Assembly (NCBI RefSeq): GCF_003003795.1
Contig: NZ_PVWK01000017.1
Coordinates: 124,001 to 188,000, forward strand
Length of the DNA stretch: 64,000 nt
Direction of reading: 5' to 3'
From: Stenomitos frigidus ULC18
Lineage (GTDB): Bacteria; Cyanobacteriota; Cyanobacteriia; Leptolyngbyales; Leptolyngbyaceae
Of the stretch, positions 43,753 to 63,753 are shown one piece after another. Within the stretch, counting starts at the first letter, position 1. Every line of letters begins with the position of its first letter. Made by a program: the position numbers and the translations under genes. The notes below the pieces were generated by a model. That model made no database searches. It saw only the letters and a program-made list of their open reading frames with translations, and was not told the origin of the DNA.

Positions 43753-45555
43753 TTACACCTCGCTATAGAGTTCCGATGGACTCAATTGCCGACCGTGTAT
43801 TAACTTATTCACTGCTGCCATAACCAGGTCAGCCCGTTTGCGTAGGAAGGCGTCAAAATCCTGCTTAAGCTTAACGGTCTTTTCTTCGTCAGAGAGACCT
43901 TCATAGCCACCATTCGCCAGTTCTGAGATGGGGATTAGATGCGCTTGAAGACGTTCCTGCACGATCGCTTCAGAAGTCCACATATAGCGATCCTTGAGAT
44001 ATTTCAGAGGATCTTTGCGCCCGATGGTGAGATTAGTGTTGTCTTTGATCAGTGCACAGTTTAGAGCTAGGAAGCTGGGAATCCCCGCTTCTTTGAGCAG
44101 CGCATCGGGGTAGACATGATGATAATGGCGATTTTCAATCGTTCTAGAATCTAACCGCTCTCCGGTAGCGAAATCTAAGGCTCCCAGACGACAGAGTACG
44201 GCGAGAACGCCTCGACCTCGAATAGTGGCACGCTTGGGCCATTCAGCAGTGAGAATTTCTTCCACTTCGACCAGACTATGGTTGGCAAAGATAGGGACAT
44301 CATTAATGCTGTAAGGGGTGGTGTCTTCTTTAGTTCGATTGGTAATGATCTTTTTGAGGGCGTTAAAGTCAGCAAAGGCATGGGTGGGTGCTGAGTTTTC
44401 GTAGCGATCGGTAAAAAAGGCACGCCAGAGATATTGCTTTAGCAGCAGTTCATCGCGACCGCGTTTATCGCCTGCATCAGGAATATTGGCATAGAGAGAG
44501 GCAATCACAGCCAGCACAGCATTAGTGGGTAGACGCTGAGCGTCGTAAATGCCCTCGTTATTGAGAAATTCTGCCATGCGGTCGAGACCACGCTCCAGAG
44601 TATCCCAGTCTTCTACCATGCGCTTTTTATCCATATTCCAGGCACCCTTCTGGTTAGGGAGATCGCCCTGAAGCAAGGCGGCAGTGGTGAGAATCAGGTC
44701 AGAGAGGGGAGCATAGCGCGCGATGTGTGGATGGCGTTGGTGGAGTTCGGTCTCCAAATCATGGAGCGACCGTTCCATGACACTTTCCACTTCAGCAACG
44801 ATGATGTCGTAGGTAGACAAGGGCTTGCTGTTGGTATTCATGTTGATGAATACGTTTAAGGCGACGGCTTTGTCGGTATGGGCTGGAAGCGCTAGATAGG
44901 GCAGGTTATAGTTGGCAACGATCGCCCGCAAGTCTTTAATCTGGTCACTAACCCGTTGTCGCAACTCAAAATACCGTTGGAGTTCATCCATGCCGGAGTC
45001 TGCCGATGGCTTGGGTAGAGCTTTGTTCAGCCAATCATCGATGTCACTTTGAATGTCTTCGGGACGTAAAAGGTGAGTGGGGATAAGACCCCGCTGTAAG
45101 CACTTATCGGGTTTATCGCACCAGAGAGGAAAGCGTTCGCCAGTGCGTTGCTTAATGTAGCGTCCCTTCCAATGAACGCTCAGGTCACGGGACTTATCCT
45201 CGTTGTAGTTATCAAACGCCTGGACGTAGATGAAATAGGTTGTCCAGGTGTAGTTATTGTGGAGTGCTCGCCAGAGGGCTGTAAGTCTTTGCTGTCCATC
45301 TAGCAGATGCTCATAAACTTTGTTGGGGGTTTCTGGAGCGGTTTTGAGATAGCGCGAGATAAACTGCTCTGCTTCACCGACTTCAAGGATGAGGGTAATG
45401 CCGAGGGGAAGGTTTTGGATAACGGTTTGGATAAGGCTGGCAATCCGGTGCTGATCCCAGGCCTCAAATCGCTGAAAGCGTGGTAGTTTGATCTCGCCTC
45501 GCTGAACTTTACCGTACCAGTCCCGAATATTGCGATTACGAGCTTCCACTATCAT
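43753..45555 (-). CDS. DUF262 (GmrS-like) protein with HNH-like C-terminus
   Basis: A 600-residue protein. The N-terminal DUF262/ParB-like NTPase domain shows LPRFQRFEAWDQHRIASLI and LLDGQQRLTALWRAL, the DGQQR signature. The C-terminal region with RTIENRHYHHVYPDALL and NLTIGRKDP fits a DUF1524-type HNH nuclease. Related GmrSD-type proteins restrict modified phage DNA. It stands just downstream of a TIGR04255 cassette on the same strand, about 100 bp apart. Restriction activity is inferred from the family. Confidence 0.85.
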   Translation of the reverse strand: MIVEARNRNIRDWYGKVQRGEIKLPRFQRFEAWDQHRIASLIQTVIQNLPLGITLILEVGEAEQFISRYLKTAPETPNKVYEHLLDGQQRLTALWRALHNNYTWTTYFIYVQAFDNYNEDKSRDLSVHWKGRYIKQRTGERFPLWCDKPDKCLQRGLIPTHLLRPEDIQSDIDDWLNKALPKPSADSGMDELQRYFELRQRVSDQIKDLRAIVANYNLPYLALPAHTDKAVALNVFINMNTNSKPLSTYDIIVAEVESVMERSLHDLETELHQRHPHIARYAPLSDLILTTAALLQGDLPNQKGAWNMDKKRMVEDWDTLERGLDRMAEFLNNEGIYDAQRLPTNAVLAVIASLYANIPDAGDKRGRDELLLKQYLWRAFFTDRYENSAPTHAFADFNALKKIITNRTKEDTTPYSINDVPIFANHSLVEVEEILTAEWPKRATIRGRGVLAVLCRLGALDFATGERLDSRTIENRHYHHVYPDALLKEAGIPSFLALNCALIKDNTNLTIGRKDPLKYLKDRYMWTSEAIVQERLQAHLIPISELANGGYEGLSDEEKTVKLKQDFDAFLRKRADLVMAAVNKLIHGRQLSPSELYSEV

Positions 45556-51826: not shown

Positions 51827-53716
51827 ATGACAGCTAAACCTTCCACTAAGCGCAAGCCGCAATGGATTTTTGATCCGGTGCCGCCATCCGGTCAGTTCAC
51901 AGGGGGTATCCCTTCTGCCTATGTCTTTAAGCCTGAACTGGATACCTTTGTGCGGGAAGTGTTGCAGAACAGTCTGGATGCCAGAAAAGCGGCAAGCCAG
52001 ACACCCACTGAGGTGAAATTCACCTTCAGGCAATTGCAGGGAGACGACAGGACGCGCTTTCTCAACACGATCGACTGGGAGTATCTGCAAACGCATTTGC
52101 AGGCGGTGGCAGAAGGTCATACCGCTATGTCTACTTTGCTAGCGAACACGATCTCCGACCTAAACAGCACCCCCCTGACCATTCTGAGAATTGATGACTC
52201 TAGTACGGAGGGGCTGACAGGAGATGAAGATACCCCCGGTACGAACTTCAGCAGCCTCTGTCGCAATATTCTCGACACAACCAAAGATGCACCCAGTAAG
52301 GGCGGCAGCTACGGTCTTGGTAAAGCCTTGCTCTGGCAGTTCTCCACCTTATCGACTGTGCTGTTTTCCTCGCGTCTTGAGGGAGAAGCGCCTCAGCAAT
52401 TTCGCTTTTTTGCCCGCACAGAGCTACCTTCCCATGAAACAGAGCAGGCACGATGGAATGGCTCCGGCTGGTATGGACTGCCGGAAACTGTCCGCAATGG
52501 TAAGCGGGCTGTCTCAATCTGGGATGAAGTTGCCGAGAAGATCACACGATCGATTTACCTGTACCGCCCTGTGCAGTTGGGGACCGGAACGTCCATTATG
52601 GTAGTTGGCTTTCACGAGCCTGCTCAGGAAGAAGCCCGTCCCCTCGCAGCGATCGCTCAAGAGATCCTGCACTCGGCTGCTCAATGGTTCTGGTATTGCA
52701 TGATTTCGGCTACCCCTTCACTCAGGGTAGTAGCAGAAGTCTACGAAGGGCATGAATTGAGCTTCCGGGGTGAAGCGATTCCGGGTAAAGAACTGGAACC
52801 GTTTATTCAGACTGTGCTGGCTGACACAACGGTTGCTAAAGCCTTTCATCGAGGCGAGGTGGCAGAAAAGGAACTGACCTTCAAAATTCCCGCTAAGAAG
52901 TCAGGCGAAGCCCCCGAAGTTGAAGCCGCCCTGAATTTCCGCTTGAGCCGGGGCGAGGATGACTCAGAGGACGCACTCTGGGGTAATCGCATTGCCTTGA
53001 TCCGTGGATCGGGCATGGTGGTCGAGTATCGTTCTCCTGGCAAAAAACTGTCCGGTATACCTTTCTGCGGGGTGCTGCGGGCTGGCAATGCCAGAGGCTT
53101 TGCTGAAGCCGATGACGCGCTGGAAATGTTTTTGAAAGACGCTGAGCCACCGTCTCACGATCAGTGGAAGGCAACGGAACGACTTCAGGAGGAGTACAGG
53201 AAAGGTTCCAAAAGCCGCCTCGATAAACTCTGGAAAGATCTGGATGAAGCGGTGGTCGAACTGTGTGGTCAGGAAATGCGCCCGGATGCTGAAGCGCCAG
53301 AAGCCCTTGCCCGTCTATTCAGGAAAGATGCGATCCAGAGTGGTAAGACGCTCAGGCAGGATGATCAGAAGCTCCAGGTATCGTGTTTAGAGGCTTTCTT
53401 TACCGAGGGTGTCTGGCGGTTTTCTGGGCGGGTCACGCAGCCAGGGACGTTGAAGAAACCCTGGAGTTTCTCGTTGCTGGTGCGGCTCGACAGTGAAACG
53501 GGGGAGGGTGAAAAACTGCTGATTGATCATTTGCGGACAACCGGAGCCGCTTCAGTACAGATCAAAGCGGAACTGGCAGAGTGTGTCGTCCAGCCATCCA
53601 GTCAGGAAATTGTCTTTGAAGGTGAAACAAAACCTGTACATGGCAATAGCCGGATGCCAGATTTGCAGCGTACTCGTGTACGCCTTGAGGTTCAACCGGG
53701 CAGAGGAGGTCGCTGA
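51827..53716 (+). CDS. GHKL (MORC/Hsp90-like) ATPase
   Basis: A 629-residue protein. Bergerat-fold motifs: FVREVLQNSLDAR (Glu44, Asn48), ILRIDDSSTEGL and GGSYGLGKALLW (lid); the region TGTSIMVVGF completes the domain. A transducer-like middle (about 260-420) and a beta-rich C-terminus follow. MORC/MutL-like ATPases are known in operons with C5 methyltransferases, where they may power DNA surveillance or restriction. Its stop overlaps the next start (TGATG), the first link in a five-gene operon. Confidence 0.85.
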   Translation: MTAKPSTKRKPQWIFDPVPPSGQFTGGIPSAYVFKPELDTFVREVLQNSLDARKAASQTPTEVKFTFRQLQGDDRTRFLNTIDWEYLQTHLQAVAEGHTAMSTLLANTISDLNSTPLTILRIDDSSTEGLTGDEDTPGTNFSSLCRNILDTTKDAPSKGGSYGLGKALLWQFSTLSTVLFSSRLEGEAPQQFRFFARTELPSHETEQARWNGSGWYGLPETVRNGKRAVSIWDEVAEKITRSIYLYRPVQLGTGTSIMVVGFHEPAQEEARPLAAIAQEILHSAAQWFWYCMISATPSLRVVAEVYEGHELSFRGEAIPGKELEPFIQTVLADTTVAKAFHRGEVAEKELTFKIPAKKSGEAPEVEAALNFRLSRGEDDSEDALWGNRIALIRGSGMVVEYRSPGKKLSGIPFCGVLRAGNARGFAEADDALEMFLKDAEPPSHDQWKATERLQEEYRKGSKSRLDKLWKDLDEAVVELCGQEMRPDAEAPEALARLFRKDAIQSGKTLRQDDQKLQVSCLEAFFTEGVWRFSGRVTQPGTLKKPWSFSLLVRLDSETGEGEKLLIDHLRTTGAASVQIKAELAECVVQPSSQEIVFEGETKPVHGNSRMPDLQRTRVRLEVQPGRGGR

Positions 53717-54681
53717 TGCCTGCTGAAAGCTTTTATCCTTACCGTACCGGGGCTGAAATGGTGCTGCTGCATCTGGATCTACCTGAGCGTGAAGAGCACC
53801 AGGCGAGTGACGAGAGCCTGCCAGTTTACCGTTGCAGCAGTGCGGAAATTCAGCTTCGGGCAGCCGCGATCGTCCCTGATGCGGTCTGGGAGAAAGTTTT
53901 TGATGCATCTGAGCGAACTCATCCGCCTGCCAAGCTCTGGCTGGTGGCACAAAGTATGGAATCACGCTCCAGACAGGCGTTTGAGCTTAAGGGGGATGGA
54001 CAGGTCTTTGAGGCTTTGATCCGCCTGAATACTGATGATTGGGCAGGCAAAGCAGAATTTCAGGCAGTGCTTGCCAGAACAACAGCCAGGGATGCATCGC
54101 CATCAGGCTATGCATCCGATGTGGGAGCGCGGCTGGCATGGTCTAAAGCCCATCTGGCACTGTTCAGGGAACCCCCGGTGCCGCAGCGCGACAGGCTAAA
54201 AATTCAGTGGAAGAAGTTTGAGGGTAGTCAAAAGTCGCAACTGTTTGCCCTTGATCACTCGGAGCCGCAACCAAAACTCTGGCTCAACTCTGAGGTTGAG
54301 GGCTTGTATGATGTGCTGAACAGTCGGGCAGTGCGAGGCTGGAATCCGGCGATCGCAGAGAACACCAGCTACCTGATCGCCCATCAGGTCTGGACATCAT
54401 TGCTGGCAACCGCTATCAGTCATCTGGCAGAAACGGGAGACTCTGATAGCCTGCCTGATCTGGCTGAGTTGCTGGAATGGGAGCGCTTGGTGCTGGAAGA
54501 CTGGATTGAGTCTCTCTTTCCAGACAGGCAAAGGGATGCGGCTTTCGATCTGTTGCTGGACTCCGTGCGTCAGCACTACTTTAGGGAAGAATTGCTGGTG
54601 CAACGGATTCCAGAAGCGATTCAGGAGAAGCTCAACACATACAGGGGTTTTGAGCATCTGTTGAAGGAGGCAGGCAGATAA
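53716..54681 (+). CDS. unknown protein of the GHKL-methyltransferase operon
   Basis: A 321-residue protein. A beta-rich N-terminal half (MVLLHLDLPEREEHQ, AEIQLRAAAIVPD, FELKGDGQVFEALIRLNTDDW) and a helical C-terminal half (LPDLAELLEWERLVLEDWIESLFPDRQRDAAFDLLLDSVRQHYF). No nuclease or helicase motif was found. Start-stop overlap with the ATPase indicates a stoichiometric partner. I do not know the family. Confidence 0.6.
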   Translation: MPAESFYPYRTGAEMVLLHLDLPEREEHQASDESLPVYRCSSAEIQLRAAAIVPDAVWEKVFDASERTHPPAKLWLVAQSMESRSRQAFELKGDGQVFEALIRLNTDDWAGKAEFQAVLARTTARDASPSGYASDVGARLAWSKAHLALFREPPVPQRDRLKIQWKKFEGSQKSQLFALDHSEPQPKLWLNSEVEGLYDVLNSRAVRGWNPAIAENTSYLIAHQVWTSLLATAISHLAETGDSDSLPDLAELLEWERLVLEDWIESLFPDRQRDAAFDLLLDSVRQHYFREELLVQRIPEAIQEKLNTYRGFEHLLKEAGR

Positions 54682-54682
54682 C

Positions 54683-55384
54683 ATGGCTCAGTCATTACGA
54701 CGCTTCACTGTACCCGTGACCCGCCCCTGGCTTTACCGATTGCTGGAGAACCCGGACTCAATGCTGACAGAGCCAGTTGATGGTCAGGCAACCCTTAAAG
54801 AGGTGAAGCGTACCGTCAATCGGTTGATCAAAAAATGTGGGAGTGAACCGCTACCTGCCAATCAGCGATCGGCGTGGGATCGAGAACTCGTCAAGCCGCT
54901 TTACGAAGCCCTCAACAGACTACCGCGTAGAACTCTGGTGGATATGCGTTTCTGGCACTGGCTCTGTACTACGCCCCTGCAAGATTTTGTCTGGTATCGC
55001 TGGCATGGGCAGATTCCTGCTGATCCCCGCAGCGTTTTGAATCAGAGTCAGGCACTGATCGGTCGGTTTACGGGCACTCCCTCCCTGAATGGCTTCAGCC
55101 GGAATGCCTTGACTCGCCTTTACTGGTGTGCGGCGACTCTGTATACCGAAGAGGAAGGCTTCTATTGGGTAGAACTGGCTCTGCAAAATCAGGATCTCTA
55201 TCAGGCTATCTTTGAGCGTCAGTTCAGCCTCTATCCACCAGCCGTGCGAGCGTGTTTGAGGGAACTGAAGGATAAGTCAGAGTCAGAACGCCGCGAGGCG
55301 ACCAAACGCCTGAACCACCATCTGACCACGATCGTTCTGGAGACCTTGACTGAAGATGATATCCGCAAGGTGTTAACTCTCTAA
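54683..55384 (+). CDS. unknown helical protein of the GHKL-methyltransferase operon
   Basis: A 233-residue protein, mainly helical: KEVKRTVNRLIKKC, DMRFWHWLCTTPLQDFVWYRWHG, ALTRLYWCAATLY and LVL-rich helices near the end. It begins 1 bp after the previous stop, with AAGGAGG at 54664 giving a strong ribosome site. It may be a DUF6339-type protein, but that recollection is uncertain. No catalytic motif is evident. Confidence 0.6.
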   Translation: MAQSLRRFTVPVTRPWLYRLLENPDSMLTEPVDGQATLKEVKRTVNRLIKKCGSEPLPANQRSAWDRELVKPLYEALNRLPRRTLVDMRFWHWLCTTPLQDFVWYRWHGQIPADPRSVLNQSQALIGRFTGTPSLNGFSRNALTRLYWCAATLYTEEEGFYWVELALQNQDLYQAIFERQFSLYPPAVRACLRELKDKSESERREATKRLNHHLTTIVLETLTEDDIRKVLTL

Positions 55385-55436
55385 CCCTAAATTTCACATC
55401 CCCACGACCTGTAGCTTTATTGCTGTCTGAATACAC

Positions 55437-57338
55437 ATGAGTAAGCCCGCTGTTCCCTTTTCAACCGGAGAAAACGTTACTCTCGCACCACACTACCGTT
55501 CCTGCGACCTGGAACAGCTTCGTGCCTATGCTCAAAAGGCACAGAAAGCGAAGAAGCCTTTAGCAATCGACCTGTTTTGTGGTGCTGGGGGGTTAAGTCT
55601 TGGCTTGCAGGAGGCAGGGTTTAACGTGATTTTGGGTGTAGACAGTTATCAACAGGCGGCGGAAACGCATAAAGCCCACTTTGGCGGAGTTTCTCTCTGT
55701 GAGGATCTCTCCAAGCCAGAGGTGATTGATGCCATTGGTGAGGCGTTAAAGGGCATAGCGATCGCGCTGGTTGCAGGTGGTCCGCCCTGTCAGCCCTTTT
55801 CACAGGCAGGGAAAAGCAAGATTCGGCATCTGGTCCAAGAAGGGGCACGGCATCAGGATGATGAGCGCCGGGAACTGTGGCAGTCGTTTGTGGCAGTTGT
55901 CGAGAGAATCAAACCCCAGGCGGTGCTGGTAGAGAATGTGCCTGATATGGCGCTGGGCGATGATGCGATCGTGCTCCGTCAGTTAGTTGCGGCACTGGAG
56001 GCTTTAAACTACGACGTGCATACCCGCATTCTGGCGGCATGGCAGTATGACATTCCTCAATTTCGCCAGCGGCTGTTTCTGGTAGGGGTACGATCGGGTA
56101 CCGCGTTCAAATTTCCCGAACCAGTCAGGGACACAAAGCCGAAACTGCGGGATGCCATCGCCGACCTGCCTGTCGTTGAGGCAGGCGCTAAGAAACTTGT
56201 CATACCGTATCAGGAACCAGAAAAGCTCAGCCGCTTTCAGAAATGGTGTCGTAGAGGCGTTGCCGCAGAGGAGCAAAACAAGCTCTACGACCACATTGTG
56301 CGTGCGGTTCGGGAGGATGATTTGGAGGCGTTTCGGCTGATGGATCATCAGACTCGTTACTCTGATTTGCCTGAAGCACTGAAACGCTATCGGGATGACA
56401 TCTTTGACGATAAATATAAGCGACTGGGCTGGGATGAACCATCCAGAAGCATTACTGCCCATCTGGCACGGGATGGCTACTGGTACATCCACCCGGAACA
56501 GCATCGCTGTCTGACCATTCGGGAGGCTGCCCGCATTCAAAGTTTTCCAGACTGGTATCGCTTTTGTGGGCATCCCAGCCATGCTTACCGTCAGATTGGT
56601 GGCGCAGTCCCGCCCTTGCTTGGCAAATATCTTGGCAAAGCGATCCTTGAGGCGACCAGCAGTTATGACTCATCAACCCGGTACGTTTCCACCGCTGCCT
56701 TGTCTACAACACTGAAACACTGGCTGGAGCAGGAACCGGAGCAAAACCTGGTGGCTCCCTGGCGACGCAGCACAGACCTGTGGCAAATTCTTCTGGGTAT
56801 TACGCTATTTGAGAAACTGCCCGATCGTCAGGTCAGGCTAATCTGGTCTACTTTCAGGGGGCGCTGGGCGGATGCAAAAGGCTTCTTGAAGGATACGCAC
56901 AGGGAAGCGGCGATCCGGGCAATGCGACAGAGCAAGCTTCTGCCGACTATCACGGCTGTTGCCAGGAGCCTGAGCAAAAAGAATGCGCTCGATAATCTGG
57001 AGCTTCCAGAGGTGGGAGAAAACCAGTTGGAAATGGCGCTGGCGCTGGCAGACCTGAGCCATCAGCGTCCCATCTTTGCGCCCATTTATCGGGTGGCGGA
57101 GCGGGTTTTCGGGGCTGAGGATGAGAGAAGCTCGATCGGGCATGAGCAATTAATGGTTGCCAGACTGGTCGGTGTCGATCAGGGTGGTCGTGCTTATGCT
57201 GGTGTGCTGGAAGTAGCAGACCAGTTCTGTAAGCCTGGTGTGCCAGAGTGTACTCGCTGTCCCCTGAATAAAGTGTGCTTCACCGCGAGCAAAACTTATC
57301 AGCCAGTCTCCTCACAAGAGTTGATACCCACTGGTTAA
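55437..57338 (+). CDS. C5-cytosine DNA methyltransferase fused to EndoIII-like tail
   Basis: A 633-residue protein. Residues 40-415 are a Dcm-type methyltransferase: FCGAGG (47-52), GGPPCQPFSQAG with catalytic Cys118, VLVENVPDM, QFRQRLFLVG and GGAVPPLLGKYLGKAI. The remaining 215 residues are helical and end CKPGVPECTRCPLNKVC, the C-x6-C-x2-C-x5-C iron-sulphur motif of endonuclease III. It methylates a short site (unknown) to give 5-methylcytosine; the tail may read mismatched or modified bases. It sits in the GHKL operon upstream of a separate glycosylase. Confidence 0.9.
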   Translation: MSKPAVPFSTGENVTLAPHYRSCDLEQLRAYAQKAQKAKKPLAIDLFCGAGGLSLGLQEAGFNVILGVDSYQQAAETHKAHFGGVSLCEDLSKPEVIDAIGEALKGIAIALVAGGPPCQPFSQAGKSKIRHLVQEGARHQDDERRELWQSFVAVVERIKPQAVLVENVPDMALGDDAIVLRQLVAALEALNYDVHTRILAAWQYDIPQFRQRLFLVGVRSGTAFKFPEPVRDTKPKLRDAIADLPVVEAGAKKLVIPYQEPEKLSRFQKWCRRGVAAEEQNKLYDHIVRAVREDDLEAFRLMDHQTRYSDLPEALKRYRDDIFDDKYKRLGWDEPSRSITAHLARDGYWYIHPEQHRCLTIREAARIQSFPDWYRFCGHPSHAYRQIGGAVPPLLGKYLGKAILEATSSYDSSTRYVSTAALSTTLKHWLEQEPEQNLVAPWRRSTDLWQILLGITLFEKLPDRQVRLIWSTFRGRWADAKGFLKDTHREAAIRAMRQSKLLPTITAVARSLSKKNALDNLELPEVGENQLEMALALADLSHQRPIFAPIYRVAERVFGAEDERSSIGHEQLMVARLVGVDQGGRAYAGVLEVADQFCKPGVPECTRCPLNKVCFTASKTYQPVSSQELIPTG

Positions 57339-57389
57339 GATTTTGGTTAAGCTGCAAAGAGCAATCTGTTTTGTTCCAGTCCTTGCTGC

Positions 57390-58163
57390 ATGACTGAAGT
57401 CGCTCCTACAGACCGAAAGCAACCTGCTATCGTAACCGACGGCGAACATAGCGTGGATGCGATAGCGTTCCGTAAGGCTTTGATCATCTGGGGCAAGGAG
57501 AACTTCAGAGCTTTCCCCTGGCGGTTTACCAGCGATCCTTATCGCATCCTGATGGCTGAGGTCATGCTTCACCGGACACAGGCATTACAGGTTGTGCCTG
57601 TGTATGAGCGTTTTTTGGAACGTTACCCTGATCTCCCTGCACTTGCTACAGCTACAGAAGAAGATTTACATGGAATGCTTTACTCACTGGGCTTGAAGTG
57701 GAGAGTCAAACTGATTTACGAGATGGTGGCTGCGCTGATGCAGCGTTTTGATGGCAAGCTCCCTTCTGATCGAGCAGACTTGCTCAGCCTGCCCGGAGTC
57801 AGTGATTATATCGCCAGTGCAGTTTGTTGCTTTGCCTGGAAACAGCCACAGGCTCTGATCGATACCAACACAGTGCGTATTGTGGCAAGAGTGTTTAACC
57901 TGAAAATTACGGACTCTTTGCGACGTAATCGCCGCTTCAAGGCTTTGCTTGAAACACTGGCCGATTCTATACAACCAGCAACTTACAACTATGCGTTGCT
58001 GGATTTAGCGAATAAAGTTTGCCTCAAGGTTCGGGAGCCAGATTGCCCAAAATGTCCTTTGTTGGAGCATTGTCATTATGGGGCGAACAAGTTACGAGTT
58101 GCCCCAAAAATCTCCACAAACTCATTCCCTGTATTTGAAACTGTCAGCGAGTGTAAAGCATAA
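57390..58163 (+). CDS. Mig-type T/U:G mismatch DNA glycosylase
   Basis: A 257-residue HhH-GPD glycosylase. FPWR (42-45), the helix-hairpin-helix LPGVSDYIASAVCCFAW and catalytic Asp158 (LIDTNTVRI) are present. The residue that is catalytic Lys in EndoIII and Ser in MutY is Tyr140 here, as in Mig.Mth, which removes T from T:G pairs made by deamination of 5-methylcytosine. An FeS cluster motif (C-x7-C-x2-C-x5-C) ends the domain. Its place behind a C5 methyltransferase fits a Vsr-like repair duty. A restriction role is also conceivable. Confidence 0.85.
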   Translation: MTEVAPTDRKQPAIVTDGEHSVDAIAFRKALIIWGKENFRAFPWRFTSDPYRILMAEVMLHRTQALQVVPVYERFLERYPDLPALATATEEDLHGMLYSLGLKWRVKLIYEMVAALMQRFDGKLPSDRADLLSLPGVSDYIASAVCCFAWKQPQALIDTNTVRIVARVFNLKITDSLRRNRRFKALLETLADSIQPATYNYALLDLANKVCLKVREPDCPKCPLLEHCHYGANKLRVAPKISTNSFPVFETVSECKA

Positions 58164-58369: not shown

Positions 58370-61300
58370 ATGGAATCCTCCTCTATACATCGCCTGTCTC
58401 CTATCTCTTTTGATGAAGTTATTCACAAATTGACCGAGGATTTTACAGGATGCGAAGATATATTTAATGCGATCGACCGCTGGCTAGAATGCCAAAATGA
58501 GCGCTTTTTCATCTTGGTTGGTAAACCAGGGGCTGGGAAAAGTGCAGTTGCTGCCTATCTTACGAAAATTCGCCCCGATATAGTAGCTCATCACTTCTGC
58601 ATTGCACGTCGCAATAATACCATTGACCCCAATTCTGTGCTTCTATCTTTAGCCGCCCAATTGGTTGAAAATCTTCCAGGATATGCAGAAGCTCTAGTTA
58701 ATACAATTACACCTCTGCATCTTTCGGTTAGTGTTTCAATTGATATTGAGATAATACGAGACAGCCAAGTTAGGGGTGTCATTATCGAACATCTACACAC
58801 CAATAATCCTGGCGAAGCCTTGGATATTATTCTACACCGTCCCATCTTAGCAATATCAAGCCAGATTCAAGAACCTATACTTATACTACTGGATGCTTTA
58901 GATGAAGCGATAGCATTCAGTAGTAATGACAATCTTGTGAGACTGTTAGCTAGCGCAAATGATTTATCATCTTATGTCCGATTTCTGTGTACAACTCGCT
59001 CCGAACAGAGGGTATGGAGTTATCTAGACATTTCTAAAATTTATAGATACGATCTAAAAAATCAATCAAGTACTATTTATAGATACATCAATTCAAGACT
59101 TTCAAGAAACGCTCTCCAAATAAAAATTCAAAATCTTCAAAACACTCGCGAAATATTTACAAATGAATTGCTGGAAAAATCTCAAGATAATTTTCTCTAT
59201 GTCAAATTGCTTTTAGATGAGATTGAAAGCGACCGATATTCTATAAATGAGTTAGCTTCTCTGCCCTCTGGATTAAACAAAATATATAGTGAATTTATCA
59301 ATCGTTCCTTAGAAGGAGTATCAAGGAACTATTCTAAATTAATTCTAGGAATTCTAGCAGTTGCCAGAGAACCACTTAGTCAGCAACAAATATCTCAATT
59401 TACAGGTGTTGAACTTGAAGATGTTGGAGAGCAGATTAGAGTAATTCGCCAATTTTTTGATGTTTTTGATTCTGGACTGGAAGAAAAATACACTTTATTC
59501 CATCAATCTTTTCGGGACTATTTGATAGATAGTAAGAATAAACCAGATTTCTGGTGTGATCCAACTAGGCAACACCAACGAATCGTTAATTTTTATTGGT
59601 CTGACAAAAAAGTATGGAGTCAGGAACATGCTAGTGATAGGTATCTTTGGAACTATTTACCTTACCATTTGAGTCAAGCTACTCAGGATGAGCAGCTACG
59701 GTCTCTACTTCTCAACTTTGAATGGCTCCAAGCAAAACTTAACGCTACCAATATTCATCGTCTGATTGCAGACTATGATCTACTTTCAAACGATCAAGAT
59801 TTGGTTTTAGTGCAACAGGCTCTTCGTCTATCAATTGGTGTCATTGAACAAGATAGCCGCCAACTTGCCAGTCAGTTGCTAGGACGGCTTATAACTTTTC
59901 CAACAAAAGATATTCAGCTTTTAATAGAACAAATTGCCGAGCGTCAAACAGCTTTTCCTTGGTTTCGCTGTTTAACGGCAAGCTTGACACCACCGGGGGG
60001 GGCTTTGGTAGGCACTTGCTGCGGTCATAACAGTTATGTGAGTTCTATAGCCTGGATTCCAAGGCAGCGACAGATGGTTTCTGCATCACGAGATTACACT
60101 CTACGACTATGGAATGTTGACTCTACTCAATGTTTACGAGTACTGAAAGGGCACGAGAATTGGATTAGAGGAGTAGTGGTTACTTCCAGTGGTGATTATG
60201 CTATTTCAGTCTCAGATGATGCAACTGTTAAGCAGTGGGACTTGAAATCTGGTGAATCTCAGAACATTCTGGAGGCTCACAATGGTGATGTTACAGCAAT
60301 AGCAACAGGACTAGATAATGATCAGGTTGTTGTTGCTTTAAGTAACCATGAAGTTGGAATTTGGCAGGCAGACAGTCAACAGTATGGTGTGTGCTTTCAA
60401 ATACCAGATAGGGTAATTACTGCAATTACAGTTTTGCAGAATCAGCGACAAATCATTTTGGTTTTAGATGACTGTACATTTCAATTATGGGATTTACTCT
60501 CTAAGAAACATCAGCGTACTTTCAAAAAAGAGCATAATGGCTCAATTACTGCTGTAGCCTTTATTCCCAATGAAAATCGAGTAATTTCCGCTTCCTATGA
60601 CTTGACACTGAAAGTATGGAATTTAGAGAACGGTAAGGTTGAACAAACCCTGCAAGGTCATTTTCAGCCAGTTAGTTCTGTTGTCATAATGCTTGATGGC
60701 AAACGGGCAATCTCTAGTTCTCGCGATCGCACACTTAGAGTATGGGATCTAAGTACAGGGGAATGCTTGTCTACATTTTTAGCACATCAAGACTGGATCA
60801 ACTGTGTGACGTTAGTCCCTGATGGCTGCAAGGTTGTCTCTGCATCAGATGATGGAACCTTAAAAGTCTGGGACTTAGAACATACCCAGCAACTGCTTCC
60901 CATACATCACAATAATCAGATTAATGACTTGGCTTTGACACCAAACGGTAGCCGATTAGTTTCTGCTTCACGAGATAAGACACTCAAAGCTTGGAATATG
61001 AAAACTGAGCAACTTGAACATACATTTCAAGGTCATGAAGCACAAGTCATGGCTGTAGCTGTGATATCTGACCATCAAGCAATTTCAGCTTCGGCTGACA
61101 AAACGTTGAAAGTTTGGGACCTTAACACAGGAAGTTGTTTGTGCACTTTCAAGGGACATTCTAGTCCGATAAATGGTGTAGCTGTATTTCGGGACGGAAG
61201 AACAGCAATTTCTGCGTCACTTGATAAGACACTCAGACTTTGGGATATAGCCACAGGTAAATGTCAACGAATTTTTGAGGGTCATGAAGGTTCAGTCACG

Positions 61301-61771
61301 ACAGTAAAAGTTTTACCAGATCAAAATCAGGTGATTTCTGCTTCAGCTGATGGAATGCTAAGAATCTGGAATATCCACACAGGAGAATGCCAGCTTTTGA
61401 AAAAAAGCCATAGTGCTCCAGTAACCAGTGTTGCAGTTACTCCAGATGGAATGTGGGTAGTATCTGCTTCAGCTGATAGAGCGGTAAAACTTTGGAACCT
61501 AGAGATTGGGTCGTGCGAACTCACACTGGGCAATCATGAAGCCTGGATACATTCTGTTGTGCTTACTTCAGACGGGCATTGGGCAGTGTCTGCTTCAGAA
61601 GATAAGACGCTAAAGCTATGGGATTTAAGACAAAGGGAATGTGCAGCGAGCTTTACTGGAGAGAGTAAGTTTAGAAGCTGTGCCATTCTTGCGGATACCC
61701 AAACTATTTTTGCTGGAAATGACGCTGGTCAAGTACATACTTTCGAAATACTAAATTCTGAAAATGGCTGA
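58370..61771 (+). CDS. NACHT-WD40 STAND protein
   Basis: A 1133-residue protein. The P-loop GKPGAGKS is at 51-58, Walker B ILILLDALDEA near 175, and FHQSFRDYLID near 385. From about 545 around 13 WD40 repeats follow (for example ISASYDLTLKVWNLENGKVEQTLQGH). No N-terminal effector domain precedes the P-loop, so an effector may be supplied in trans. Base composition is AT-richer than the operon before it. A nucleoside phosphorylase-like gene lies close downstream on the other strand. A sensor/switch role is inferred. Confidence 0.85.
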   Translation: MESSSIHRLSPISFDEVIHKLTEDFTGCEDIFNAIDRWLECQNERFFILVGKPGAGKSAVAAYLTKIRPDIVAHHFCIARRNNTIDPNSVLLSLAAQLVENLPGYAEALVNTITPLHLSVSVSIDIEIIRDSQVRGVIIEHLHTNNPGEALDIILHRPILAISSQIQEPILILLDALDEAIAFSSNDNLVRLLASANDLSSYVRFLCTTRSEQRVWSYLDISKIYRYDLKNQSSTIYRYINSRLSRNALQIKIQNLQNTREIFTNELLEKSQDNFLYVKLLLDEIESDRYSINELASLPSGLNKIYSEFINRSLEGVSRNYSKLILGILAVAREPLSQQQISQFTGVELEDVGEQIRVIRQFFDVFDSGLEEKYTLFHQSFRDYLIDSKNKPDFWCDPTRQHQRIVNFYWSDKKVWSQEHASDRYLWNYLPYHLSQATQDEQLRSLLLNFEWLQAKLNATNIHRLIADYDLLSNDQDLVLVQQALRLSIGVIEQDSRQLASQLLGRLITFPTKDIQLLIEQIAERQTAFPWFRCLTASLTPPGGALVGTCCGHNSYVSSIAWIPRQRQMVSASRDYTLRLWNVDSTQCLRVLKGHENWIRGVVVTSSGDYAISVSDDATVKQWDLKSGESQNILEAHNGDVTAIATGLDNDQVVVALSNHEVGIWQADSQQYGVCFQIPDRVITAITVLQNQRQIILVLDDCTFQLWDLLSKKHQRTFKKEHNGSITAVAFIPNENRVISASYDLTLKVWNLENGKVEQTLQGHFQPVSSVVIMLDGKRAISSSRDRTLRVWDLSTGECLSTFLAHQDWINCVTLVPDGCKVVSASDDGTLKVWDLEHTQQLLPIHHNNQINDLALTPNGSRLVSASRDKTLKAWNMKTEQLEHTFQGHEAQVMAVAVISDHQAISASADKTLKVWDLNTGSCLCTFKGHSSPINGVAVFRDGRTAISASLDKTLRLWDIATGKCQRIFEGHEGSVTTVKVLPDQNQVISASADGMLRIWNIHTGECQLLKKSHSAPVTSVAVTPDGMWVVSASADRAVKLWNLEIGSCELTLGNHEAWIHSVVLTSDGHWAVSASEDKTLKLWDLRQRECAASFTGESKFRSCAILADTQTIFAGNDAGQVHTFEILNSENG

Positions 61772-62784: not shown

Positions 62785-63753
62785 TCAGATTTCATGATTT
62801 GGAGTGTTACTTTGTAATCTGATCCCAACAATCTTTGAGCTTTTCACTGTTTCTGTTTTTTGTCCAACCTTCATGCTCCCTGATTGGGAATTATCAGCGT
62901 CGATTCCTACTACATCTGAATTTTCCAAAGTTCCGAATTCCATTTGCACTTCAGCGTTTATAGGTTCTTGCTGTGGATTATTCATATTAGAGGATAAATC
63001 TGATAATTGAAACTTTCCTAGTATTTCGAAAGCGAATGCGCTGGCATAATAAGAAGCCTTTTCCTGGCGAATCTGTTCTGATTCCAGAGAATCGTCATTC
63101 TTGCCTTCGATTAAGTCAGAAACTCCTCGAATCACGATCGCCTTCATCTCAGGATAAGCAAACACTGCACTCAAGAAGCCAAATCCTTCCATCTCAACTG
63201 CTATCGCATCGTTATAACGCGCCCTGATGAAGTTAAAAACATCTGATTCTTTCGAGGCAACCACCTTCTCCCCAGCAGCAATAGGACCTACAAACACACG
63301 GGGTTGTGAAGCTGGACTGCTGCTAGATAGCCGCCTTAACCACTCGCCTTTTCTTGCCTCTGCTCTAGCACGCGCCACTAATGCATGAGCCGATTGCCCT
63401 AACGCAGGGCGGGTGAAGAATTGTTTGTTTATCTTACCGGACTCATAACTATAAACTTGTGTCGCTGCCACCACATCTCCGATCGCAACGTCTTTGATGC
63501 CTCCCGCGATGCCCACAAAGAAAAGGATGTCCGGTTTGAAATAGGTGATCGCCCTTTCCGCTTCGATGGCGGCTCCCGCATTACCTGCTCCTACCTCGGC
63601 AATCCCGACTTCCCACACCTGCTCATTTTCGACGAATTTTCCTCGCTCGTAAATAGTTCCTTGAGGATGCATCTCCTCCTGAAGATCAATCAGATGGGCA
63701 CGAACCGCTTGGTATTCGACAGGAAGGGCGGTGAGAATAACGGCACGGGGCAT
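62785..63753 (-). CDS. nucleoside phosphorylase-like (PNP/UDP) protein with beta tail
   Basis: A 322-residue protein. Residues 1-240 have the MTA/SAH nucleosidase-like fold: AVILTALPVEYQAV, FFVGIAGGIKDVAIGDVV, GEKVVASKE, AVEMEGFGFLSA and IRGVSDL (catalytic Asp). The last 80 residues carry short strand-like repeats (MEFGTLENSDVVGIDADNSQSGSMKVGQKTE). This phosphorylase domain is a recurring effector in STAND-based conflict systems, where it may destroy nucleotides. Its end lies just 11 bp from the convergent gene. Confidence 0.8.
   Translation of the reverse strand: MPRAVILTALPVEYQAVRAHLIDLQEEMHPQGTIYERGKFVENEQVWEVGIAEVGAGNAGAAIEAERAITYFKPDILFFVGIAGGIKDVAIGDVVAATQVYSYESGKINKQFFTRPALGQSAHALVARARAEARKGEWLRRLSSSSPASQPRVFVGPIAAGEKVVASKESDVFNFIRARYNDAIAVEMEGFGFLSAVFAYPEMKAIVIRGVSDLIEGKNDDSLESEQIRQEKASYYASAFAFEILGKFQLSDLSSNMNNPQQEPINAEVQMEFGTLENSDVVGIDADNSQSGSMKVGQKTETVKSSKIVGIRLQSNTPNHEI

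What the first reader, a model, noticed from the sequence alone, without database searches (positions are those of the whole stretch)
51827..58163. Five-gene operon: GHKL ATPase, two unknowns, C5 methyltransferase-EndoIII fusion, Mig-type glycosylase
Seen: four tightly spaced or overlapping genes plus the glycosylase on one strand. Known: MORC/MutL-like ATPases occur with C5 methyltransferases in restriction-like loci, and Mig.Mth glycosylase is encoded beside a C5 methyltransferase. Inference: a modification system whose effector is an ATPase complex of the two unknown proteins, with base excision instead of a nuclease. No classical restriction endonuclease or helicase is visible, so this could be an undescribed defence type.
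Basis: partly seen in the sequence, partly recalled or inferred. Interest (0 to 1): 0.85.

Follow-up and report, generated by a model that had tools for sequence, protein, structure and literature searches.

The report
Methylation-linked MORC-type defence operon
A cyanobacterium carries a five-gene cluster that probably marks its own DNA with methyl groups and uses a DNA-handling ATPase with two little-known partners against unmarked DNA, while the fifth gene most likely repairs mutations that the marking causes; the three-gene core is widespread, already catalogued as a candidate defence system, and how it works is unknown.

Summary
The five genes are real and lie where stated. The core (GHKL ATPase A, unknown B, DUF6339 protein C) is a conserved triad in cyanobacteria, actinobacteria, haloarchaea, Chloroflexota and others, nearly always beside a C5 methyltransferase. 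It is not undescribed: A carries the ExxxH signature published for paraMORC2 (Iyer et al. 2008), and A and C match PADLOC's candidate system PDC-M33. The window belongs to a separate clade (type 1) whose B the PADLOC model misses. The standalone glycosylase has the key residues of the T:G enzyme Mig.MthI at six of seven sites; in relatives its place is taken by Vsr (37 loci against 17, never both) and many loci have neither, so it is most likely a 5-methylcytosine repair accessory. The 'EndoIII' domain fused to the methyltransferase has lost its catalytic residues in all 12 homologues. Models of B (Ig-like sandwich plus helices) and C (all-helical) show no recognised nuclease fold, though absence is not proven. 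Best reading: an R-M-like system with a paraMORC2 ATPase complex as restriction part, a standalone version of a module elsewhere combined with DISARM or Mza genes. New variant of a known kind.

The parts
51827..53716 (+). A: GHKL ATPase of the paraMORC2 type (629 aa)
   Evidence: GHKL motifs E44/N48/D51, D124, G160xxGxGK166, G254-T255 and ExxxH E440/H444 conserved in relatives; published MORC-proper motif absent in 106/106; PADLOC PDC-M33A E 2e-32
53716..54681 (+). B: unknown 321-aa protein, Ig-like beta-sandwich (about 10-153) plus helical C-terminal part
   Evidence: AlphaFold2 model pLDDT 90; best VIA Z 8.2 over 106 residues, rmsd 3.9, to Ig-like sandwiches, a middling score; no Pfam match; position between A and C kept in relatives
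54683..55384 (+). C: DUF6339 protein, all-helical (233 aa)
   Evidence: PF19866 E 1e-35; PDC-M33C E 7e-20; model pLDDT 95, best Foldseek E 1.2
55437..56673 (+). M, N-terminal part: C5-cytosine DNA methyltransferase
   Evidence: PF00145 E 2e-57; motifs FCGAGG, GGPPC, ENV, QFRQR, QIGGAVP intact
56674..57338 (+). M, C-terminal part: degenerate MutY/Mig-like domain, predicted catalytically dead, Fe-S cysteines kept
   Evidence: catalytic Tyr/Lys and Asp positions replaced in 12/12 fused homologues; fused domains one clade 100/100 on a long stem
57390..58163 (+). G: Mig-like T:G mismatch DNA glycosylase (257 aa), probable repair accessory
   Evidence: Mig.MthI-type residues at F27, E42, R47, A50, Y126, D144 (Tyr at the L187 position); own MutY and EndoIII as controls differ; reference residues from PMC2714593

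Best explanation
A restriction-modification-like defence locus. Inferred steps: M methylates cytosine C5 at its target motif in host DNA. A, B and C form a complex in which the paraMORC2 GHKL ATPase dimerises on DNA as an ATP-gated clamp, with B (Ig-like sandwich plus helices) and C (helical) as recognition and scaffold parts; the complex acts on DNA that lacks the mark, by an unknown final step (clamping or blocking, a nuclease from elsewhere, or an unrecognised nuclease). G is not the effector: it removes thymine from T:G mismatches that arise when 5-methylcytosine deaminates, as Vsr does in sister loci. The dead glycosylase domain fused to M probably serves only in DNA binding or positioning. 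Shown here by computation: gene order, conservation, intact ATPase and methyltransferase motifs, the Mig-like residues, the dead domain, and exchange of Mig for Vsr between loci. Not shown: defence activity, complex formation, methylation motif, fate of the target DNA.
For: A-B-C kept together across phyla and a C5 methyltransferase within 6 kb in 64/74 loci. GHKL motifs nearly invariant, so the ATPase is under selection. ExxxH in 106/106 and the published MORC motif in 0/106, fitting the paraMORC2 description; that paper reports paraMORC families in R-M operons with cytosine methylases and Vsr. Glycosylase residues and controls; Vsr 37, solo Mig 17, both 0; glycosylase next to the C5 methyltransferase also in haloarchaea and a Chloroflexota MAG. 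A relative (L029, 76% A identity, with homologous upstream DNA) keeps A, has a cut B and has lost C, M and G, so A without its methyltransferase is tolerated. DISARM or Mza genes next to many triads point to defence. Eukaryotic MORC2 works as an ATP-dependent DNA clamp and compactor (PMC12216690), a precedent for the clamp step.
Against: No phage or plasmid assay of this triad was found. A few triads (L034, L035, L052, L091) have no recognised methyltransferase within about 9 kb. The missing nuclease may only be unrecognised: fold searches cannot exclude a divergent one. Many loci sit among DISARM or Mza genes, so the triad may not act alone. The Mig/Vsr exclusion is confounded with taxonomy (Mig in haloarchaea, this cyanobacterium and one Chloroflexota MAG). 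G differs from Mig.MthI at the L187 position (Tyr).
Confidence: 0.62

Rival explanations
1. The triad is an accessory module, not a system of its own: it supplies an ATPase platform for Mza- or DISARM-type machinery, and in this genome borrows the Z1 helicase and DUF4420 PD-(D/E)XK-family protein of the Mza-like operon 21.5 kb downstream.
For: Triads lie near DISARM genes in 37 of 78 long loci and near Mza genes in 10 more. On S. elongatus pIITB6 a DUF4420 gene overlaps the type-2 A gene. The own contig carries GHKL-Z1-DUF4420-AIPR at C80:203654-211054.
Against: The Mza-like operon here has its own GHKL ATPase with the true MORC motif GFYVYRNERLL, so it looks complete. In 21 of 78 long loci no scored DISARM, Mza or helicase partner is near, and none was scored in the nearest relatives L030-L032 either. 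No MZB/DUF1998 (DrmB) match in this genome.
Confidence: 0.22
2. One reading: base excision is the effector; the ATPase complex and the glycosylase (solo and/or fused) excise bases from foreign DNA.
For: A glycosylase is encoded in the operon, and MutL-type ATPases act with strand-nicking repair enzymes (Vsr, MutH) in known pathways.
Against: The fused domain lacks its catalytic residues in all homologues. The solo glycosylase is absent from most triads and its place is held by Vsr in 37 loci, while 38 of 92 have neither (some of these loci are short). Unmethylated invading DNA offers no T:G mismatch as substrate (established knowledge of the enzyme family).
Confidence: 0.06
3. The triad is not defensive: it is a chromosome-organising or regulatory complex that reads or controls the cytosine methylation laid by M.
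For: MORC relatives in eukaryotes compact DNA and suppress transcription; no nuclease fold was recognised; A is fused to sigma-70-like and HTH domains in Streptomyces.
Against: Patchy distribution across phyla and on plasmids, location next to DISARM, Mza, Vsr and GmrSD-type genes and decay in a close relative suit a mobile defence locus better than a housekeeping role.
Confidence: 0.1

Closest known systems
PADLOC candidate system PDC-M33 (A, B, C)
   Same: same three-gene order; A matches PDC-M33A (2e-32) and C matches PDC-M33C (7e-20)
   Different: the window's B is missed by the PDC-M33B model (2 of 58 relatives match, best 0.003), whereas type-2 loci match all three strongly; A forms a separate type-1 clade (97% SH-aLRT); PDC-M33 itself is an unvalidated candidate
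paraMORC2 GHKL ATPases in R-M operons (Iyer, Abhiman and Aravind 2008, PMC2292703)
   Same: GHKL motifs, ExxxH signature, cyanobacteria and Gram-positives, neighbours such as cytosine methylases, Vsr and (in some loci) Z1 helicase and a PD-(D/E)XK-family protein
Mig.MthI T:G glycosylase beside a C5 methyltransferase
   Same: key residues at 6 of 7 checked sites and adjacency to a C5 methyltransferase
   Different: Tyr at the L187 position; sits in a five-gene locus with an ATPase triad; activity untested
Mza (GHKL, Z1 helicase, DUF4420, AIPR)
   Same: MORC-related ATPase in a defence locus; Mza genes are often beside the triad
   Different: the Mza-like ATPase on this contig has the true MORC motif; the window operon lacks Z1, DUF4420 and AIPR
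DISARM
   Same: multi-gene and methyltransferase-linked; M's best PADLOC hit is DrmMII; DISARM genes flank many type-1 triads
   Different: no DrmA/DrmB/DrmC-like gene was scored in the window from 40 kb on, and there is no MZB/DUF1998 match in the own genome

Membership tests
paraMORC2 GHKL family | intact GHKL ATP-binding motifs | tested here: met
   conserved in 94 type-1 and 12 type-2 A proteins with few exceptions
[quoted passage not shown]
   E440 and H444 in 106/106; the S5 fold itself was not modelled
paraMORC2 GHKL family | sequence grouping with the paraMORC2 proteins of the 2008 paper | not tested
   those sequences are in a figure and were not available here
MORC proper | GhXhhpXXRhl motif | tested here: not met
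   0 of 106 A proteins; the Mza-like GHKL of the same contig has it
PADLOC PDC-M33 | A model | tested here: met
   E 2.1e-32
PADLOC PDC-M33 | C model | tested here: met
   E 7.4e-20
PADLOC PDC-M33 | B model | tested here: not met
   no match for the window's B; 2 of 58 relatives at about 0.003; type-2 B proteins match at 4.5e-37 and 4.2e-50
PADLOC PDC-M33 | A-B-C gene order | tested here: met
   window and relatives
Mig-type T:G glycosylase | E42, A50, Y126, D144 (Mig.MthI numbering) | tested here: met
   present in P0005; own MutY has V and Q at the A50 and L187 sites, own EndoIII genes have Lys at the Y126 site
Mig-type T:G glycosylase | L187 | tested here: not met
   Tyr in P0005, His in L030, Leu in the haloarchaeal homologues
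Mig-type T:G glycosylase | thymine excision from T:G | not testable with these tools
   needs an enzyme assay
EndoIII (fused domain of M) | catalytic Lys and Asp | tested here: not met
   absent in 12 of 12 fused homologues
classical type II R-M | C5 methyltransferase with intact catalytic motifs | tested here: met
   motifs present; activity not tested
classical type II R-M | cognate restriction endonuclease | tested here: inconclusive
   no nuclease family match; B and C folds gave no clear match; a divergent nuclease is not excluded
Mza | Z1 helicase, DUF4420 and AIPR in the operon | tested here: not met
   these are in a separate operon 21.5 kb away with its own GHKL gene
DISARM | DrmB (DUF1998/MZB) | tested here: not met
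   no MZB match in the own genome

The most novel reading that the evidence does not exclude
A nuclease-free restriction system: a MORC-related ATPase complex (A-B-C) clamps and condenses DNA that lacks the host's 5-methylcytosine mark and so silences it without cutting it, a bacterial counterpart of eukaryotic MORC silencing.
Probability: 0.18. Interest if true: 0.88.

Novelty: new variant of a known kind. Interest (0 to 1): 0.56.

Why it matters
If the model holds, one compact locus ties a MORC-type ATPase to cytosine methylation without a visible nuclease, which would make the old question of what prokaryotic MORC relatives do in R-M loci directly testable. Exchange of Vsr and Mig in otherwise similar loci would show two unrelated enzymes used for the same need, repair of 5-methylcytosine deamination. 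The window's type-1 branch is also partly missed by a current defence-finding library (its B protein), so such loci may be undercounted, and the same triad recurs beside DISARM and Mza genes.

Tried and rejected
Nuclease in B or C: profile searches of the PDB gave nothing; Foldseek had no match with E below 0.001 for either; VIA gave Z 8.2 (106 residues, rmsd 3.9) to Ig-like sandwiches for B and Z 5.4 (64 residues, rmsd 3.2) for C, both in the range of common arrangements. No PD-(D/E)XK match appeared in these lists, which does not exclude one. Viral carriage: 27 pattern matches in IMG/VR, none confirmed. A second C5 methyltransferase with a nearby glycosylase in the own genome (contig C160) looked like another Mig pair, but the glycosylase is an ordinary EndoIII with the catalytic Lys, 2.7 kb away with other genes between. 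Literature: no paper mentions DUF6339 or PDC-M33. Glycosylase as effector: rejected, see rivals.
Full report
OBSERVATION. The five ORFs stand exactly as described on the + strand. A and B overlap by 1 nt, B and C are 1 nt apart, and M and G follow after 52 and 51 nt. Pfam assigns C to DUF6339, M to the C5 DNA methylases and G to the HhH-GPD glycosylases; A and B have no Pfam match. The arrangement is conserved well beyond chance. A profile-based scan of one genome for each of about 85,000 species found 228 relatives of A (76 distinct loci kept), in cyanobacteria, actinobacteria, haloarchaea, Chloroflexota, Planctomycetota, Myxococcota and Gemmatimonadota, and none confirmed in viral contigs; plasmid copies exist in haloarchaea, Synechococcus, Deinococcus and lactic acid bacteria. 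Downstream of A, C is present in 99 of 100 usable copies; B is present in 88 by the type-1 profile and replaced by a diverged B-sized protein in the remaining 12. A C5 methyltransferase is within 6 kb in 64 of 74, against two in the whole own genome.

WHAT A IS. The GHKL motifs are nearly invariant and ExxxH (E440, H444) is present in 106 of 106 A proteins, while the published MORC-proper motif GhXhhpXXRhl occurs in none. Iyer, Abhiman and Aravind (PMC2292703) define paraMORC2 by that ExxxH and report paraMORC families in R-M operons with cytosine methylases, Vsr, an SFII helicase and an RE-fold protein. In the tree of A the loci form two groups, type 1 (with the window) and type 2, split by a branch with 97% SH-aLRT support. 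Type-2 loci match PADLOC's candidate system PDC-M33 with all three proteins; the window matches A (2e-32) and C (7e-20) but not B. So this is a sister branch of a catalogued candidate, not an unknown type; no paper naming it or DUF6339 was found.

THE GLYCOSYLASE. Against the residues reported for Mig.MthI and MutY (PMC2714593), G has F, E, R, A, Y and D at the F27, E42, R47, A50, Y126 and D144 positions and Tyr at L187. The own genome's MutY has V and Q at the A50 and L187 sites, and its EndoIII genes have the catalytic Lys, so the test discriminates. All solo homologues keep the Y and D. Across 92 loci, Vsr is present in 37, a solo Mig-like glycosylase in 17, both in none, neither in 38 (Fisher p 7e-5 on the longer loci, but taxonomy confounds it, since most Mig loci are haloarchaeal). 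In haloarchaea and in a Dehalococcoidia MAG (L030, the nearest relative of the window with all five genes; A 43%) the glycosylase also lies beside the methyltransferase. The plain reading is repair of T:G mismatches from 5-methylcytosine deamination, with Vsr and Mig as alternatives. Because many triads have neither, it cannot be the general effector.

THE FUSED DOMAIN. The C-terminal part of M is related to MutY/Mig, but the catalytic Tyr/Lys and Asp positions are replaced in all 12 fused homologues, all cyanobacterial; the Fe-S cysteines remain in the window and are lost in Prochlorococcus. The fused domains form one clade (100/100) on a very long stem, as expected after loss of constraint on the active site. 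The methyltransferase motifs themselves are intact.

B AND C. Models are confident (B pLDDT 90, C pLDDT 95). B has an Ig-like beta-sandwich (about 10-153) and a helical C-terminal part; C is all-helical. Fold searches gave no strong match. Neither looks like a known nuclease, but B's C-terminal part was barely tested and a divergent nuclease is not excluded.

CONTEXT. With profiles built from neighbours whose identity PADLOC gave (DrmA 1e-90, DrmB 3e-76, DrmC 8e-64, MzaC 8e-64, MzaD 1e-5), 37 of 78 long loci carry DISARM genes near the triad, 10 carry Mza genes, 9 a conserved unknown haloarchaeal pair, 1 a helicase pair, and 21 none of these. The window is in the last group. Its contig does carry a separate Mza-like operon (GHKL with MORC motif, Z1, DUF4420, AIPR) 21.5 kb downstream, and a GmrSD_N protein lies 6 kb upstream: a defence island. 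A relative, L029, shares 76% of A and upstream DNA but has a truncated B and no C, M or G, so A without the methyltransferase is tolerated.

MECHANISM. Committed reading (confidence 0.62): M marks host DNA; A-B-C acts on DNA without the mark, A as ATP-gated clamp; G repairs deamination damage. Shown: anatomy and conservation. Inferred: complex formation, clamp action, discrimination by methylation, and defence itself. MORC2's ATP-dependent clamping and compaction in vitro (PMC12216690) is the precedent for the clamp step; whether the triad cuts, recruits a nuclease or only blocks DNA is open. The strongest rival is that the triad is an accessory of Mza or DISARM (0.22).

VERDICT. Observation confirmed; interpretation partly supported. 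New variant (type 1, Mig-bearing, standalone) of a known candidate kind.

Noticed in passing
L060 7204-10890, L075, L076, L084, L085, L089, L095, L097, L098: In nine Streptomyces loci the A ATPase has a long N-terminal extension; in L060 it holds sigma-70 regions 2, 3 and 4 and an HTH. In other actinobacteria A carries a shorter extension, an HTH in the one scanned (L069).
   Followed up: partly
own contig C80:203654-211054 (L119 5655-13055): Complete-looking Mza-like operon: GHKL with MORC motif, Z1, DUF4420, AIPR, 21.5 kb downstream of the glycosylase.
   Followed up: partly
window 43753-45555 (-): GmrSD_N (DUF262) protein of 600 aa, a possible type IV-like restriction part.
   Followed up: no
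window 58370-61771 (+) and 62785-63753 (-): STAND-type NTPase with many WD40 repeats, and a PNP_UDP_1 phosphorylase-family protein whose N-terminal sequence recurs in a 1624-aa ORF beyond the window.
   Followed up: no
L029 8979-11675: Decayed copy in Cyanobacteria bacterium FACHB-471: A intact, B cut, C, M and G absent, with homologous upstream DNA.
   Followed up: partly
L021, L022, L023, L024, L025, L054, L062, L090; S. elongatus pIITB6 (L017, L116): Picocyanobacterial islands and one plasmid carry a type-1 and a type-2 triad side by side; on pIITB6 a DUF4420 gene overlaps the type-2 A.
   Followed up: partly
L018 6747-6977, L022 8388-8615, L025 14501-14722, L026 3930-4151, L027 13074-13292: Conserved 72-76-aa protein directly upstream of type-2 A genes; no Pfam or PADLOC match in the one tested, L027.
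   Followed up: no
haloarchaeal loci, e.g. L040 6557-7333 and 7330-8850: Two conserved unknown proteins (about 258 and 508 aa) next to type-1 triads in 16 and 12 loci, without Pfam or PADLOC match in the copies tested.
   Followed up: no
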